Source: Methanobacteriaceae archaeon
Lineage (GTDB): Archaea; Methanobacteriota; Methanobacteria; Methanobacteriales; Methanobacteriaceae
Direction: 5' to 3'
DNA length: 38,915 bases
NCBI GenBank assembly: GCA_029219465.1
Contig: JAQXTL010000021.1
Coordinates: 1 to 38,915, forward strand
Positions 26,914-34,604 of this stretch are shown here, piece after piece (position 1 is the first letter of the stretch; each line of letters starts with the position of its first letter). A program made the position numbers and the translations under genes. A model generated the notes under the pieces. That model saw only the letters and a program-made list of their open reading frames with translations. It was not told where the DNA came from and searched no databases.

Positions 26914-27206
26914 ATGATCAGCAACAAAGAAAAAGATAAAATCAAAGAAGAAATTTTGAGAAAATAAACTCAGTTTTAGAAAAAAACGGCGAATCATTCA
27001 GACTTGACCAGGTAAATGTTCTAAAAAGAAGTGAAAGTGTCAAGTTTATGGGAAACTACAGGGTTTATGACAGAAGAAACTATGATTCCGTTTCAAGGGA
27101 AATTAATTCCTTTTTAAAGAAATACGGAAAAGTTGAAATAAAATCCAAAAAAATCAGAGACAACGGAATGAAATTTACAACTGTAAGCTTCAATTTTGAG
27201 TTGTAA
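26914..27206 (+). pseudogene. small gene broken by a one-base frameshift
   Basis: An ATG with GATGAT upstream starts MISNKEKDKIKEEIL and stops after 17 codons. A second frame is open from 26955 without a start: FEKINSVLEKNGESF and on to FTTVSFNFEL, 83 codons. Joining the frames by adding one T to the TTTT run at 26954-26957 gives a smooth ~98-aa protein, MISNKEKDKIKEEIFEKINS and onward. So one base is missing, either in nature or through a sequencing error. The joined protein is small, charged, and not recognised. Confidence 0.7.
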
Positions 27207-28097: not shown

Positions 28098-28658
28098 TTG
28101 AGTTTAGAATGGAATGATGTTGTTCTTAAGGATGTTTTATCAGAGAAAGGATATATTAGAGGGCCTTTTGGTTCCGCATTAAAAAGAACTGAAATGAAAT
28201 CTGAAGGAATTCCAGTTTATGAACAGCAAAATGCAATATATGATAATCGAATTTTTAGATATTTTATTGATGAAGAAAAATACCAATCATTAAAACGATT
28301 TACAACTTATCCTGATGATTTGATAATTAGCTGTTCTGGTACTGTTGGTAAAGTTTCAATAATCAAAGATGATGATCCAAAAGGAATTATAAGTCAAGCT
28401 TTATTGACTTTAAGAGTTAATAAAGATTTAATTCTTCCAGAATTTTTAAAGTACTTTTTCTGTTCATATGAAGGGTATAATTCATTAGTATCCCGTTCTA
28501 CTGGCTCTGTCCAAGTTAATATATCAAAAAGAGCAGTCATCGAAGAAATTCCTTTAAAACTACCTCCATTGGATATACAACAAAAAATAGTTTATTACTT
28601 GAGTTTAATTGATAAAAAAATCGAAACAAATGAGGAAATAAATAAAAATTTTAAATGA
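28098..28658 (+). CDS. orphan half HsdS, type I restriction specificity-like
   Basis: A 186-aa protein with one target-recognition domain (GPFGSALKRTEMKSEGIPVY, then YPDDLIISCSGTVGKVSII) and the start of a conserved helical spacer (LPPLDIQQKIVYYLSLIDKKIETNEEINKN). Normal HsdS is about 400 aa with two of each and continues past the point where this stops. No hsdM or hsdR is nearby. The start is a TTG with no ribosome binding site, so it may be a decayed remnant, a spare cassette for recombination, or a subunit acting in trans. Sequence cannot decide. Confidence 0.75.
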   Translation: MSLEWNDVVLKDVLSEKGYIRGPFGSALKRTEMKSEGIPVYEQQNAIYDNRIFRYFIDEEKYQSLKRFTTYPDDLIISCSGTVGKVSIIKDDDPKGIISQALLTLRVNKDLILPEFLKYFFCSYEGYNSLVSRSTGSVQVNISKRAVIEEIPLKLPPLDIQQKIVYYLSLIDKKIETNEEINKNFK

Positions 28659-28956: not shown

Positions 28957-29556
28957 ATGTCAGTTAAGAAATGGGATAAAGCAAAAGAAAAAGATAAAGA
29001 AGGAAAATATGCAAGAATAGGTATGGAAACTATGTGTGCACACTGGTTTAATATAGAGAAGAGGAATTCTGCATGTGTTAAAGCAATAGTTGATGATTAT
29101 CTAGAAAATGTCAATATGGATTTTTTTATGTGGATTCGTTGCGGTAGTCCTAAACGTTCTCCAATAATTTTAAAAAGAAATTATTTGGAAAGTAATTATA
29201 GTGATCTGTTAATGGTTTCAGATGACTTGCATGTTATTGCGGATTTATTCTTACATTTATATGGCCAGAAATTTTTTGTTGATGATAATGCTGACTGTAT
29301 TTACTCAACGGAGTTAAAAGATTTCAATAGAAGAAAATTAAATTATATTGGTATCATGATGGAATTAGAAAGATTAACAACTCTTCATGAAAGAAATGTT
29401 TTGACCTGGGAAGATATTGATGAATCTGTTGAATTATTGAATAAATATGGTTATGATATTAATCAAGACAATAGCTATCGTACAGATGATTTATATGAAA
29501 CTGCTGCCAATATTGAAGAACGATTGAATTTAATATTTAACATTACAGATGATTAA
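28957..29556 (+). CDS. unknown 199-aa protein
   Basis: Not recognised. It is a soluble, acidic, mostly helical protein, without transmembrane stretches. It has a lysine-rich start (MSVKKWDKAKEKDKEGKYAR), an aromatic middle (NMDFFMWIRCGSPKRSP), and a long helical end. The frame opens at a TTG, but GAGG before the ATG at 28957 supports that start. It is first in a same-strand run of four genes (to 31388) that includes TPR-HIRAN and zinc-ribbon proteins. Confidence 0.65.
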   Translation: MSVKKWDKAKEKDKEGKYARIGMETMCAHWFNIEKRNSACVKAIVDDYLENVNMDFFMWIRCGSPKRSPIILKRNYLESNYSDLLMVSDDLHVIADLFLHLYGQKFFVDDNADCIYSTELKDFNRRKLNYIGIMMELERLTTLHERNVLTWEDIDESVELLNKYGYDINQDNSYRTDDLYETAANIEERLNLIFNITDD

Positions 29557-29580
29557 TATACTCTGTAAAAGGTGATTTTT

Positions 29581-30471
29581 ATGAATGAATGGCATATAGG
29601 AGATCCAGTAGATTGGGGAGACGGTTGGATGGATGCCCAGAACTGGGGTCACGGTCACGATGATGAGAAAGAGCATCACAAGGGTATTGAAGTTGATTTA
29701 ACAACTCGCAAGATAAATGAATACTCAAAAAAAGCTTGGAATCATTATATGGAGTTCCAAGAGGAAGAAGCACTTCACTATATTAACTTAGCATTGGATT
29801 TAAATGACAGACATGCAAACAACTGGAACAGAAAAGCAATTATTCTTGAAGGCATGAAAAGATATGCCGAATCTGAAAAATGCTATAACAAATCACTCGA
29901 ATTATCTCCACAGAAGTTGGTTTATGAAAACAAAGCCAGAATGCTATTGAGTTGGTCACATCAATTACTTGAAGAGTCAAAAGAATTACCAAACGGATTA
30001 AATAAACTGAAAGAAGCAGAAAATAAAATCATAAAGGCAATGAATGCTCTTCCTGGAGATAGTGAGGAAGATATCAATAAATATCTTAGAATGAGAGACA
30101 GTATTAATTTTTATATAGATTATGAAAATAAATTCCAACGAAATCATGAAACTTTGAAAGGATATGATAAATTTGAACTGTTTACAATAACAGGAAGGAA
30201 GTTTTATAGAAATAATATAACTCTTACTTCAGGCATGCCTTTAAAACTCGTTAAGGAACCCGATAATGAATTTGATAAGGATGCAATTGCAGTATATGCT
30301 AAAAATGAAAAGATAGGTTATGTAGCAAATAAAGATTATACAAAATATGAATTAACCTCATCAGCATCTGAACTGCAAGATAAAATTGAAGATATTGCTC
30401 AAGGAAGCTATTTATTATATTTGGATAGATATGCAGATATACAATTCCATATTGGGAGAATAGTCAAATAA
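29581..30471 (+). CDS. TPR protein with C-terminal HIRAN domain
   Basis: A 296-aa protein. The start is rich in Trp, His and Asp (WHIGDPVDWGDGWMDAQNWG). Residues about 45-125 form TPR repeats (AWNHYMEFQEEEALHYINLA and the next one, NWNRKAIILEGMKRYAESEK). The last ~98 residues match HIRAN: FTITGRKFYRN, LKLVKEPDNEFDKDAIAVYA, KIGYVANKDYTK. HIRAN domains, as in HLTF, can bind DNA ends or stalled forks. GGTGAT four bases before ATG 29581 decides the start. Joining TPR and HIRAN suggests a scaffold near DNA, which is inference. Confidence 0.8.
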   Translation: MNEWHIGDPVDWGDGWMDAQNWGHGHDDEKEHHKGIEVDLTTRKINEYSKKAWNHYMEFQEEEALHYINLALDLNDRHANNWNRKAIILEGMKRYAESEKCYNKSLELSPQKLVYENKARMLLSWSHQLLEESKELPNGLNKLKEAENKIIKAMNALPGDSEEDINKYLRMRDSINFYIDYENKFQRNHETLKGYDKFELFTITGRKFYRNNITLTSGMPLKLVKEPDNEFDKDAIAVYAKNEKIGYVANKDYTKYELTSSASELQDKIEDIAQGSYLLYLDRYADIQFHIGRIVK

Positions 30472-30487
30472 AAAATATGGTGATTTT

Positions 30488-30802
30488 ATGAAATGTCATT
30501 TTTGTGATGAAACATTAAAAGAAGGGGAATTAATATGCCATAATTGTAAATCAATGGTTATCGATTTTAATTACATGAAAAATTTACGTGAAATAGAAAA
30601 TAAATATAGTAAAAGAGATTTTCTAGAGTTATCAAAAGAAAAATTAACTTTTCCGGAAATAGTGACAATACTCACTTTCATTAAAAGGTCAGACCGTCAT
30701 GCCGGTGATACATACATGCAAGATAAATGTAGAGAAGACGGAACATGCTCCAACCTGCACAAAAGATTAGAAGAAATAAGAAATGAAACAGACAATATTT
30801 AA
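30488..30802 (+). CDS. small zinc-ribbon protein
   Basis: A 104-aa protein with an N-terminal zinc ribbon, CHFC at residues 3-6 and CHNC at 17-20, and a helical rest. A second Cys pair late in the protein (CREDGTC) may add a site. GGTGAT precedes the ATG. It sits between two genes with HIRAN-like domains. Function unknown. Confidence 0.7.
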   Translation: MKCHFCDETLKEGELICHNCKSMVIDFNYMKNLREIENKYSKRDFLELSKEKLTFPEIVTILTFIKRSDRHAGDTYMQDKCREDGTCSNLHKRLEEIRNETDNI

Positions 30803-30851
30803 TTTATTCAATTGTTCTCGTTAAAGGATATGGTGATTTAAGGTAGATATT

Positions 30852-31388
30852 ATGGAATGCAGTTCAAATTTGGGAAGTGCAACATTAGAGAAAATAGGTA
30901 AAGAAAATCTAATGGCTTTTGATACAGAATTAATGGATTCTCCAAAAGAATTTTTCAAAAAAGGGGATGTACTTAAAATAGAGAAAAAAGATTGGGGAGG
31001 AGAATTTGTACCTAATCTGGTAGTTTATTTGGATGATATGCTGATAGGTTACGTTGCAGATGATAAAGATACTCCAAAAGAATGTTCAAAGGCATCAGAC
31101 ATTGAATATCTTCCGGGTAAAACTTATGCAATATATTTGGGAAAATGTGAAAACAAGATTATTGAAAATGAATATTTCCATGTTGCAAAAATAATGTTCG
31201 GGAGTGAATCTAAAGTAACTGATTGGGTAAGGAGCATGGAATTGAGTGAATGGATATCCCGCTACGATTTACTGGATCATGATTATCACAAACTATTGAT
31301 GCTGCTGCGTGAAGGAGCTCATGAAAATCAATCCGCAGAAGAAGTCTTAAAAAAAGCAAAAGAAAAAAGATTAAAAGGTTTACACTAA
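30852..31388 (+). CDS. divergent HIRAN-like domain protein
   Basis: A 178-aa protein with a central domain (residues about 38-118) that I can line up with the HIRAN part of the gene at 29581: LKIEKKDWGGEFVPNLVVY, MLIGYVADDKDTPKE, then ASDI, a gap, YAIYLGK and FHVAKIM, at the matching spots. The typical EPDN/YD residues are weak, so the call is tentative. The C-terminal 60 residues are helical (WISRYDLLDHDYHKLLMLLR). It closes the same-strand run of unknown genes. Confidence 0.6.
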   Translation: MECSSNLGSATLEKIGKENLMAFDTELMDSPKEFFKKGDVLKIEKKDWGGEFVPNLVVYLDDMLIGYVADDKDTPKECSKASDIEYLPGKTYAIYLGKCENKIIENEYFHVAKIMFGSESKVTDWVRSMELSEWISRYDLLDHDYHKLLMLLREGAHENQSAEEVLKKAKEKRLKGLH

Positions 31389-31452
31389 TTAATAAGATAG
31401 TTGATTATTCTTATGATAATTTACCTCCTTTAGATATTAATATAAAAAATAT

Positions 31453-31615
31453 TTATTTAATATCTTTAGAAAAACTTTCAATTGGTACAATAAAATCTTT
31501 TTCTGTTTGTTGATAACATCTATAAATAGCTTGAGCGCCGTTTTCAGTATAAACCCATTTGGTTTAATAGAAAGTGTTTAATAAAAACAAGCATTCCATC
31601 TGTTTTAGCAATCCA
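31453..31615 (-). pseudogene. eroded gene remnant, minus strand
   Basis: The 313-base gap 31389-31701 holds decayed coding sequence. On the minus strand 31453-31563 reads as 37 open codons: TKWVYTENGAQAIYRCYQQ then EKDFIVPIESFSKDIK and stop. Upstream in another frame (from 31615) WIAKTDGMLVFIKHFLLNQ runs up to it. The pieces look like one protein split by a frameshift, with no start left. The rest of the gap shows nothing. Confidence 0.5.
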
Positions 31616-31701
31616 CTAGAAGTTCATGAAGATTAATGCAATAAATCCTATACATAATTTTAATTATCATTTGACTTAATATATAATTAGAGGTTTTTAA
31701 C

Positions 31702-32613
31702 ATGAATCAATATGATATTATTATTATCGGAGCCGGACCTGGCGGATTGACCGCTGGAATTTATGCAGGCCGTCAGGGAACTAGAAATTTAATTTTGGAC
31801 AAGGACATGGCAGGAGGCCTGGGCCGTGAGGTTCCTGCAATGGAAAACTATCCAGGATATGACATGATTTCAGGTCTTGAACTTGTAGAAAAGATGAAGG
31901 AACAGGCCATAAAGAACTGTGAGTTAAAGGAAATGGAATGCGTTGAGGAAATCACAAAGGAAGATGGTGAATACAGATTCACAGTTAAGACCAGCAAGGA
32001 AACATACCAATCCAAAACAATAATTCTTGCAACCGGAAGCTCACACAGACAGTTAGGTGCAAAAGGAGAAGAAGAATTTAGAGGAAAAGGAGTTAGCTAC
32101 TGCGCTACCTGCGACGGATTTTTCTTTGCCGGACGTGACATTGTAATGGTGGGTGGAGGAAACAGTGCACTTCAGGAAGCATTATACCTCAAAAACCTTG
32201 GAGCAAACGTTACCCTTATTCACAGAAGGGATGAATTCAAGGCTCAAAAGCACTTACAGGACAAAATAAAAGAAAATGAAATAAAAACAATAATGAACGC
32301 AACCGTTGAAGAGATAAAAGGAAACATGCTTGTGGAGTCTGTTGTATTAAAAGACACAAAAACAGGAAAATTGAGTGAACTTCCAACTAATGGAGTGTTC
32401 GTAAGCGTAGGATACATTCCGCATACTGATTTGGCATATCAGCTAAACGTGAAACTGGATGAATCAGGACATATCATAACTGACAAAGCTCAAAAAACTA
32501 ACGTTGACTATGTATATGCCGTTGGTGATGTCTGTGTTGGCTTAAAACAGTGGGTTGTAGCTTGTGGGGAAGGTGCAGTCGCTGCAACTTCCGCATTTGA
32601 AGATATTCAGTAA
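31702..32613 (+). CDS. trxB: thioredoxin reductase
   Basis: A 303-aa flavoenzyme that reduces thioredoxin-like partners. The FAD site reads IIGAGPGGLTAGIYAG (residues 9-23), the redox pair is CATC at residues 134-137, the second nucleotide site is MVGGGNSALQEA, and the end has DYVYAVGDVCVGL. The length is typical. In methanogens the electron donor may be other than NADPH. AGAGG precedes the ATG, and TTAATATATAAT is a TATA candidate just upstream. Confidence 0.93.
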   Translation: MNQYDIIIIGAGPGGLTAGIYAGRQGTRNLILDKDMAGGLGREVPAMENYPGYDMISGLELVEKMKEQAIKNCELKEMECVEEITKEDGEYRFTVKTSKETYQSKTIILATGSSHRQLGAKGEEEFRGKGVSYCATCDGFFFAGRDIVMVGGGNSALQEALYLKNLGANVTLIHRRDEFKAQKHLQDKIKENEIKTIMNATVEEIKGNMLVESVVLKDTKTGKLSELPTNGVFVSVGYIPHTDLAYQLNVKLDESGHIITDKAQKTNVDYVYAVGDVCVGLKQWVVACGEGAVAATSAFEDIQ

Positions 32614-32750
32614 TGTTCTTGCAAATAAATGTAGATAAAAAATGCTATTACTAACACTACAAGTACCGGCAACAGCCAAAAGAATATTTTAAGTAAAACT
32701 ACTGCTATTAAAATTGCAGCAATAACGAATATTAAATCTTTAAGTTCCAT
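32607..32750 (-). CDS. 47-aa small membrane protein
   Basis: On the minus strand an ATG opens MELKDLIFVIAAILIAVV and closes with IYIYLQEHY. Two hydrophobic helices flank a short KIFFWLLP turn, a normal small membrane protein. The stop overlaps the trxB end by 7 bases, convergently. A TATA-like TTTATATATT lies about 30 bases before the ATG, and no ribosome binding site is seen, which suggests a leaderless message. Function unknown. Confidence 0.55.
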   Translation of the reverse strand: MELKDLIFVIAAILIAVVLLKIFFWLLPVLVVLVIAFFIYIYLQEHY

Positions 32751-32849
32751 ATAAGATTGATTTATTTTATTTAATATATAAATTTTTCAATAAACTATAA
32801 TAAATAAAAAAACTAAAAATAATATCATTATATTTTAATGGAGCATAAG

Positions 32850-33422
32850 ATGACAATTTTAGTAATTAATAACAAAGGCCAATATAATCACAGAATCGCT
32901 AGAAGTTTACAATACTTAAAAATTCCAGCTAAACTAGTTTCAAACGAATTATCCCTTGAGGAAATTGAAGCTGAAAATCCTATCGGATTAATTTTAGGTG
33001 GAGGACCATCAATTGAAGGTGCAGGTTTAAGTGAAGAGTACATCAAACACTTTGACATTCCAATACTCGGAATCTGTCTTGGCCATCAGTTAATTGCTAA
33101 AGCATATGGTGGAGAAGTAAGCACTTCTGAAACTGAAAGTTATGCTCAAGTTAAAATAGACATTAAAAATGATGAAAACTTATTTGAAGGTCTAGCTCCT
33201 GAAATCGATGTTTGGTCATCCCACAAGGATGAAGTTAAAACAGTTCCTGAAGAATTCGAAGTCTTGGCTAGTTCCAACTTATGCGATGTTGAATCATTTA
33301 AACATAAAGATAAAGATGTATATGGAATACAGTTCCACCCTGAAGTACATCACACTCCAAAAGGAGAAGTAATTTTTAATAATTTTTATAAAATCTGTAA
33401 AGATAGGTGCGAAAATGATTGA
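32850..33422 (+). CDS. guaAA: GMP synthase glutaminase subunit A
   Basis: A 190-aa class I glutamine amidotransferase that gives ammonia to the GuaAB ATP-PPase subunit for GMP from XMP. The nucleophile Cys sits in [17 protein letters not shown], and the catalytic His/Glu in [12 protein letters not shown]. Archaeal GMP synthase is split in two proteins as here. I chose the ATG at 32850, with GGAG before it, over 32838. Confidence 0.95.
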
Positions 33423-33678
33423 TAATGCTGATGATTTAAGAGATAAAGCAAACGAATTCAAAACAGGATTAAAAAAACAATCCATCAACATCCCTATTGG
33501 AGATGAAGAATACGGTTTTAGAATTTCGGGTATTGGTCAAAAATCCGTGAAATTAGAAAAATACGTTAAATTTGATGAAATCTTTGAAGCTATTGAATCA
33601 GGAAATGACAATGGCCTTGAAGCAATTATTAAACAGTTAATTGAAGATTACGAAGAAGAGGAAGACGAGGAATTATAA
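33415..33678 (+). CDS. 87-aa acidic protein between the GMP synthase halves
   Basis: Not recognised. A soluble small protein with a lysine-rich start ([13 protein letters not shown]), a beta-like middle ([20 protein letters not shown]) and a very acidic end ([11 protein letters not shown]). It overlaps guaAA by 8 bases, and its stop shares a base with the guaAB ATG, so it is coexpressed with both. It may bridge or tune the two GMP synthase parts. That role is inferred from position only. Confidence 0.75.
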
Positions 33679-34604
33679 TGTTAAGCCCAAAAGAATTTAT
33701 CGAAGAATCCATTCAAAAAATCAAAGATCAAATTGGTGACGAAAAAGCGATCATTGCATTGTCCGGTGGAGTAGACAGTTCAGTATGTTCTGTTCTCGTA
33801 CAGGAAGCAATTGGTGACAACTTAACTGCTGTTTTTGTTGACCACGGTCTTTTAAGAGAAGGAGAAGTTGAACAAGTAACCAACACTTTCAAAGACAGAT
33901 TAAACTTTAAATTTGTTGATGCTTCCGATGAATTTATGGATGCTCTTGCAGGAGTTGAAGATCCTGAAGAAAAAAGAAAAATTATCGGAAAAGTATTCAT
34001 TGATGTATTTGAAAGAGAAGCAATTAAATCTGGTGCTAAATTCTTAGTACAAGGAACCATTGCTCCAGATTGGATTGAAACTAAAGGTGAAATCAAATCT
34101 CACCACAACTTAGCTCTTCCAAGCGGAATGGAATTAGAATTATGTGAACCAATCCGTGACTTATACAAAGACGAAGTAAGAGAAATCGGTGATGAACTCG
34201 ATTTACCTGCAACTACCGTTTACAGACAACCTTTCCCAGGACCTGGTCTTGGTGTGCGTGTTGTTGGAGCACTTACCCGTGAAAATGTTGAAATCTGTAG
34301 AAAAGCAAACAAAATTGTTTGTGATGAAATTGAAGCTGCAGGAATCGATAAAGAAGTATGGCAATACTTTGCAGTATTAACCAATACCAAAGTTACTGGT
34401 GTAAAAGGTGACCAAAGAGACTTTGGATACTTAGTTGTTGTTAGAGTAGTTAACTCTATTGATGCAATGACCGCATCTGTTGCTGAACTTCCATGGGAAG
34501 TTGTACAAACTATATCCAAAAGAATTACCTCAGAAATTTCTGAAGTTACCCACGTCGCTTTATCTGTAAGTGACAAACCACCTGCAACCATCGAATTCTG
34601 TTAA
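33678..34604 (+). CDS. guaAB: GMP synthase ATP-pyrophosphatase subunit B
   Basis: A 308-aa subunit that adenylates XMP and accepts ammonia from the glutaminase subunit. The PP-loop reads [14 protein letters not shown] (residues 28-41). The dimerisation/XMP part holds [16 protein letters not shown] and the C-terminal [12 protein letters not shown]. It starts inside the stop of the small gene before it and ends in a hairpin terminator. Confidence 0.97.

What the first reader, a model, noticed from the sequence alone, without database searches (positions are those of the whole stretch)
28957..31388. Accessory cluster with two HIRAN-type genes, a zinc ribbon and an unknown protein
Four same-strand genes (unknown, TPR-HIRAN, zinc ribbon, HIRAN-like) lie between decayed ORFs and next to a half-HsdS. 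HIRAN is best known fused to helicases and nucleases in DNA repair. Here it stands with TPRs and small proteins with no enzyme, which suggests a DNA-linked sensing or defence module not described before.
Basis: partly seen in the sequence, partly recalled or inferred. Interest (0 to 1): 0.6.

Follow-up and report, generated by a model that had tools for sequence, protein, structure and literature searches.

The report
DNA-end-binding HIRAN gene cassette, methanogen
A gut methanogen carries a small accessory gene cassette whose core protein joins a protein-docking repeat domain to a domain predicted to grip DNA ends; it travels with a small zinc protein and often lies beside anti-virus or DNA-repair genes in related genomes, so it may be an undescribed DNA-sensing defence or repair accessory.

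Summary
Four same-strand, closely spaced genes lie at 28957-31388. p2 (29581-30471) is a TPR-HIRAN protein: HIRAN is over Pfam's cut-off, the model is confident, and the HLTF-type ssDNA pocket positions are kept. p4 (30852-31388) is a real but degenerate HIRAN relative that lost the pocket's Asn and Asp. p3 (30488-30802) is a C4 zinc ribbon plus a DUF6508-like tail. p1 (28957-29556) is an orphan.

The four genes are not a fixed operon. p2 belongs to a genus-wide, multi-copy Methanobrevibacter family. p3 in its zinc-ribbon form sits directly next to a TPR-HIRAN gene in 10 of 11 strong cases; the eleventh lies at a contig end. p4 is known only here and in one sister genome. p1 relatives survive only as pseudogenes, again just upstream of TPR genes.

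Neighbourhoods of the p3-bearing loci hold HsdR, Cas1, UvrD and PD-(D/E)XK genes that a same-size control lacked. Neighbourhoods of the p2 family in general do not. Three of about 18 close p2 homologues sit directly beside an exonuclease-III-like gene.

Best reading: a recombining accessory DNA-end-binding adaptor cassette used in conflict with foreign DNA or in DNA-end repair. Mechanism unproven.

The parts
28957..29556 (+). p1, 199-aa protein of unknown fold; the only intact copy found
   Evidence: ORF; no Pfam, NCBIfam or PADLOC hit. Relatives only as decayed copies: G061:C17 (50% over residues 9-62) and G019, each upstream of a TPR gene
29581..30471 (+). p2, TPR-HIRAN protein (296 aa)
   Evidence: Pfam HIRAN 33.2 bits and TPR over cut-offs; AF2 pLDDT 87.6, TPR helices 40-193 and beta domain 200-294; Foldseek hits TPR proteins and lp_0118 3k2y
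29581..29658 (+). N-terminal tag MNEWHIGDPVDWGDGWMDAQNWGHGH of p2, shared with proteins of other architecture
   Evidence: Iterated profile finds 42 tagged frames; search of genomes finds the tag in 20 genomes of the genus; disordered in the model
30166..30468 (+). HIRAN domain of p2, pocket residues F208, N229, F231, D232
   Evidence: Alignment to HLTF and lp_0118; N229 and D232 invariant in 25 homologues
30488..30802 (+). p3, C4 zinc ribbon plus DUF6508-like C-terminal tail (104 aa)
   Evidence: Cys 3, 6, 17, 20 conserved; DUF6508 below cut-off for p3 itself (15.7), above cut-off for a relative beside a TPR-HIRAN gene (30.6 against 23.6)
30852..31388 (+). p4, degenerate HIRAN domain with helical C-terminal tail (178 aa)
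   Evidence: hhalign 98%, profile and shuffles; Asn and Asp of the pocket absent; AF2 pLDDT 76.7; Foldseek inconclusive
28098..28658 (+). half HsdS, type I specificity subunit remnant (flank, not part of the cassette)
   Evidence: Methylase_S 53.2 bits; the only such hit in the genome
31382..31510 (+). possible second HsdS remnant (LPPLDI motif) just after p4; weak
   Evidence: 16-residue match to the upstream HsdS, E 5e-5 in a single pairwise comparison

Best explanation
The region is a recombining accessory cassette whose core is p2 plus p3. Shown: p2 carries a TPR scaffold and a HIRAN domain whose HLTF-type single-stranded-DNA pocket positions are kept; p3 (zinc ribbon plus DUF6508-like tail) is its conserved gene partner; p4 is a HIRAN relative without the pocket signature. 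Inferred: p2 binds 3' or single-stranded DNA ends through HIRAN and holds one or more partners on its TPR face (p3 here; in some relatives an exonuclease-III-like nuclease encoded next door), marking exposed DNA ends for processing. p4, probably unable to bind DNA, would act as a decoy or regulator of p2. The most likely use is handling foreign or broken DNA ends as an accessory to restriction, CRISPR or repair genes.
For: HIRAN call and pocket positions in p2; NN90,91AA in HLTF abolishes DNA binding and Y72/Y93 stack the bases (PMC4666394), and the Asn91, Asp94 and two aromatic positions are kept in p2. Confident model. p3 linkage: zinc-ribbon p3 is adjacent to a TPR-HIRAN or tagged gene in 10 of 11 strong matches. 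Exonuclease-III-like genes directly adjacent (gap 42, overlap 11, gap 40 bp) to close p2 homologues in three species. PADLOC families at E<=1e-10 among 94 neighbours of p3- or p1-bearing loci: 126, including HsdR, Cas1 and GajB/UvrD, against 8 among 94 proteins from random regions, with none of these. Low G+C (0.29-0.33) against nearby housekeeping genes (0.37-0.41); frequent decay of copies.
Against: No DNA-binding, interaction or infection experiment. Neighbourhoods of close p2 homologues in general show little PADLOC signal, so p2 may mainly serve something else. The defence comparison uses unequal sampling: p3-bearing loci were taken +/-9 kb, two loci were added for p1 or truncated p2, and control genomes were fewer. 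Family counts overstate hits, because one HsdR or Cas1 matches many models. DUF6508 and the TPR partners have no known function.
Confidence: 0.42

Rival explanations
1. A housekeeping-type DNA-repair accessory: TPR-HIRAN recruits exonuclease-III-like or other repair enzymes to host 3' ends or stalled forks. The defence context only reflects the variable regions where such genes collect.
For: Adjacent exonuclease-III-like genes in three species; p2 family in 109 of 139 genomes at some level; p2 between the two sister genomes shows 7 synonymous and 1 nonsynonymous change; few defence genes near p2 homologues in general.
Against: No nuclease gene in this cassette, and the genome's only Exo_endo_phos match is the housekeeping one, on another contig. 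Patchy p3, p4 and p1, with many pseudogenes, is unlike a core repair function.
Confidence: 0.27
2. HIRAN here no longer binds DNA. The tagged or zinc-ribbon TPR proteins, SseB-type and zinc-ribbon neighbours form a lineage-specific scaffold or stress-adaptation set of Methanobrevibacter with no DNA role.
For: Neighbours rich in zinc-ribbon and SseB proteins; the tag is shared by proteins without HIRAN; p4 has lost the pocket.
Against: N229 and D232 are invariant in 25 homologues that fall to about 29% overall identity, which fits retained ligand binding.
Confidence: 0.2
3. A toxin-antitoxin or effector-immunity pair, in which p1 or p3 is toxic and p4 or p2 neutralises it, as HipN (HipS-HIRAN) is thought to do for HipI.
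For: HIRAN proteins are predicted antitoxins in hipIN (PMC8262856); small closely spaced genes with decay and duplication.
Against: No kinase, nuclease or other toxin domain in p1-p4; p3 decays without p2 and p2 often stands alone.
Confidence: 0.08

Closest known systems
HIRAN domain of HLTF/Rad5 (PDB 4XZF, 4S0N, 5BNH)
   Same: Same domain; Asn91, Asp94 and the aromatic positions of Y72/Y93 kept as N229, D232, F208, F231
   Different: No helicase or RING; fused to TPRs and a disordered N-terminal tag
lp_0118 of Lactobacillus plantarum (PDB 3k2y)
   Same: Closest solved relative of the HIRAN part by sequence (E 9e-6) and by fold
   Different: About 109-residue structural-genomics protein; no TPRs
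HipIN / HipL HIRAN toxin-antitoxin kinases (PMC8262856)
   Same: C-terminal HIRAN in a small accessory operon; proposed sensing of phage DNA ends
   Different: No HipA-type kinase and no HipS domain in this cassette
PADLOC candidate PDC-M03
   Same: p2 matches model PDC-M03B, E 2.3e-6
   Different: Match covers only the HIRAN stretch; no other PDC-M03 component among p1, p3, p4
DUF6508 (PF20118)
   Same: C-terminal half of p3 and its relatives
   Different: p3 itself scores below the cut-off and carries a zinc ribbon in place of the N-terminal part; no literature found

Membership tests
HIRAN domain (PF08797), p2 | Score over the curated cut-off and the N-x-(Y/F)-D-x-x-A-I signature | tested here: met
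   33.2 against 24.7 bits; signature NEFDKDAI
HIRAN domain (PF08797), p2 | Beta-barrel HIRAN fold | tested here: met
   AF2 pLDDT about 93 over the domain, Foldseek hit 3k2y E 4.5e-4
HIRAN domain (PF08797), p2 | Binding of ssDNA or 3' ends | not testable with these tools
   Only residue conservation shown
HIRAN domain (PF08797), p4 | Score over the curated cut-off | tested here: not met
   No Pfam hit at E<=1
HIRAN superfamily (distant), p4 | Homology to HIRAN by profile | tested here: met
   hhalign 98%, E 2.3e-13; shuffles
HIRAN superfamily (distant), p4 | HIRAN fold by structure search | tested here: inconclusive
   Foldseek best HIRAN hit 4xzg, probability 0.28, E 1.1
DUF6508 (PF20118), p3 | Score over the curated cut-off | tested here: not met
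   15.7 against 23.6 bits; relatives reach 24-31
HipIN/HipL toxin-antitoxin | HipA-type kinase in the operon | tested here: not met
   No kinase domain in p1-p4
PADLOC PDC-M03 | Partner component beside the HIRAN protein | tested here: not met
   p1, p3, p4 have no PADLOC hit
Type I restriction-modification | HsdR and HsdM beside a full HsdS | tested here: not met
   Half HsdS only, no second Methylase_S in the genome; no large HsdR- or HsdM-size ORF beside it

The most novel reading that the evidence does not exclude
An undescribed archaeal defence accessory: a polymorphic, multi-copy family of tag-TPR-HIRAN DNA-end sensors paired with a zinc-ribbon/DUF6508 protein, inserted into restriction and CRISPR loci of Methanobrevibacter, with swappable C-terminal and partner modules and HIRAN-derived regulators that no longer bind DNA.
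Probability: 0.25. Interest if true: 0.65.

Novelty: new variant of a known kind. Interest (0 to 1): 0.4.

Why it matters
Prokaryotic HIRAN domains are common but uncharacterised. This cassette gives a stand-alone HIRAN adaptor with a conserved partner and no catalytic domain, so the DNA-end-sensing idea can be tested in isolation. It also points at a genus-wide accessory family in rumen and gut methanogens, whose defence repertoire is poorly known and matters for phage- or enzyme-based methane control.

Tried and rejected
p1 in 85,000 species, plasmids and 139 family genomes: no intact relative. p3 in plasmids and viral contigs: none. HIRAN in viral contigs: 55 loci with only the generic domain, not followed. 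PrimPol_Msp hit on p2 (NCBIfam) is only the TPR stretch and far below its cut-off. Foldseek on p4 gave no significant fold. p4's model was built on an alignment that contained HIRAN sequences, so it is not independent evidence. Exonuclease-III clustering of 8 of 14 within 5 kb against 0.24 expected is biased, because the genomes were partly chosen for it (0 of 6 in G039, G061, G098); I rely only on the three direct adjacencies among homologues chosen by p2 identity. Conserved four-gene operon: rejected.

Full report
What is there. The four ORFs are real and on one strand: p1 28957-29556, p2 29581-30471, p3 30488-30802, p4 30852-31388. Gaps are 24, 16 and 49 bp; p2, p3 and p4 have a GGTGAT box upstream. 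G+C is 0.29-0.33 against 0.37-0.41 for nearby housekeeping genes, which fits an acquired segment in an A+T-rich genome. The window is contig C21 of a 1.66-Mb genome.

p2. Pfam gives HIRAN 33.2 bits (cut-off 24.7) at residues 201-250 and TPR at about 80-111. The AF2 model from 25 homologues has mean pLDDT 87.6: helices 40-193, a beta domain 200-294 and a disordered N-terminus. Foldseek finds TPR proteins and the bacterial HIRAN-type protein lp_0118. A HIRAN-only profile hits lp_0118 (E 9e-6) and human HLTF (E 0.0014). Against HLTF, N91 and D94 align with N229 and D232, both invariant in 25 homologues, and Y72/Y93 align with F208/F231. In HLTF the NN90,91AA mutant binds no DNA, and Y72 and Y93 stack the bases of a single-stranded dinucleotide (PMC4666394). 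HLTF N90 is Asp in p2. That p2 binds DNA is therefore likely but inferred.

p4. No Pfam hit, but profile-profile comparison to HIRAN gives 98% probability, E 2.3e-13. The HIRAN profile scores 24.9 bits on p4 and 39.5 on its paralogue in genome G061, against 8.5 for the best non-HIRAN protein of the loci and at most 13.9 in 3000 shuffles. It lacks the Asn and Asp of the pocket and has a helical tail. Foldseek is inconclusive.

p3. Cys 3, 6, 17 and 20 form a C4 ribbon conserved in the zinc-ribbon relatives. The tail matches DUF6508 weakly (15.7 bits), but a relative beside a TPR-HIRAN gene in G055 scores 30.6 against a cut-off of 23.6, so the tail is DUF6508-derived.

p1. No family in any library. 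Relatives are remnants only. In G061 contig C17 a p1 fragment is followed by a DUF6508 remnant and then a zinc-ribbon TPR gene. Contig C17 ends in an exact 141-base overlap with contig C22, which continues that gene into HIRAN-like domains. In G019 a p1 remnant precedes a tagged TPR gene. So p1 is a rare member of the same kind of locus, not a chance neighbour.

Conservation. p2-like matches occur in 109 of 139 family genomes, often several per genome, with full-length homologues of 50-68% identity in about 20 loci. p3 with its zinc ribbon gives 11 strong matches in 10 genomes. Ten are directly beside a TPR-HIRAN gene, mostly with p3 upstream of the HIRAN gene; the eleventh (G087:C5) lies at a contig end. 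p4 is found only here and in G061. In G061 the block from window 29533 onward is nearly identical, but upstream of it p1 is replaced by a tagged TPR gene and a p4 paralogue. The cassette is therefore modular and recombining.

The tag. The first 26 or so residues of p2 (EWHIGDPVDWGDGWMDAQNWGHG) start 42 frames of differing architecture, in 20 genomes of the genus. In some p2 orthologues a zinc ribbon (MGICPNCGSWVDEGDICMNCGG) stands in its place. The 93-99 bp encoding the tag are 83-88% identical at the DNA level to the starts of otherwise different genes, consistent with exchange of 5' ends. What the tag does is unknown.

Neighbourhoods. Close p2 homologues in general: few PADLOC hits among 104 neighbours. 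p3- or p1-bearing loci: HsdR, Cas1, GajB/UvrD-type helicases, DUF2779 PD-(D/E)XK nucleases and Schlafen-group helicases among 94 neighbours, against none of the first three in 94 proteins from 13 arbitrary regions. Sampling was not matched, so this is suggestive. Exonuclease-III-family genes stand directly beside close p2 homologues in G071, G038 and G084; the window genome has only its housekeeping copy elsewhere.

Mechanism. Most likely p2 is a DNA-end-binding adaptor with p3 as partner; p4 is a pocket-less HIRAN relative that may regulate it; the cassette serves foreign-DNA conflict or end repair. Steps shown: domains, pocket conservation, linkage. Steps inferred: DNA binding, p2-p3 contact, p4 regulation, purpose.

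Literature. The paper searches found no description of this pairing: no paper mentions DUF6508, and none was found on TPR-HIRAN in Methanobrevibacter. The library is partial. The nearest published idea is that HIRAN in HipL/HipN recognises phage DNA ends (PMC8262856). HIRAN-HipA-diDNase clusters near defence genes are also reported (PMC11706625).

Noticed in passing
29581-29658, and 42 frames in related loci: A short N-terminal tag (EWHIGDPVDWGDGWMDAQNWGHG and the variant VGDPADWGD.VGVPDIPYMGYL) heads proteins of different architecture in this genus, swaps with a zinc ribbon in orthologues, and is conserved at DNA level; function unknown.
   Followed up: partly
26958-27206: Remnant or alternate-start copy of a ~97-aa protein of unknown function (MGNYRVYDRRNY...) that is 77-85% identical to copies in G045, G070 and G089 TPR-HIRAN loci.
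   Followed up: no
L079:14580-15836, L083:7456-8733: Exonuclease-III-like domain fused to a zinc ribbon and a further ~150-aa C-terminal domain without a Pfam hit, directly beside TPR-HIRAN genes.
   Followed up: partly
L096:2890-4160, L110:1887-3124: cas1 (and a probable cas2) lie within about 6 kb of a p3 gene (G087) and of a p1 remnant plus tagged TPR gene (G019).
   Followed up: partly
L089 and L100: A DUF2779 PD-(D/E)XK gene and a UvrD-type helicase gene flank the p3/TPR-HIRAN cassette in G039 and a truncated TPR gene in G040.
   Followed up: no
window 29533-34601 against L011: Cassette plus trxB and the next gene are almost identical between the two sister genomes, while guaA differs at 68 sites, suggesting a recent recombination tract.
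   Followed up: partly
G000:C17:43000-43173 (L017): The genome's only other HIRAN match sits in a 68-aa ORF, probably a fragment.
   Followed up: no
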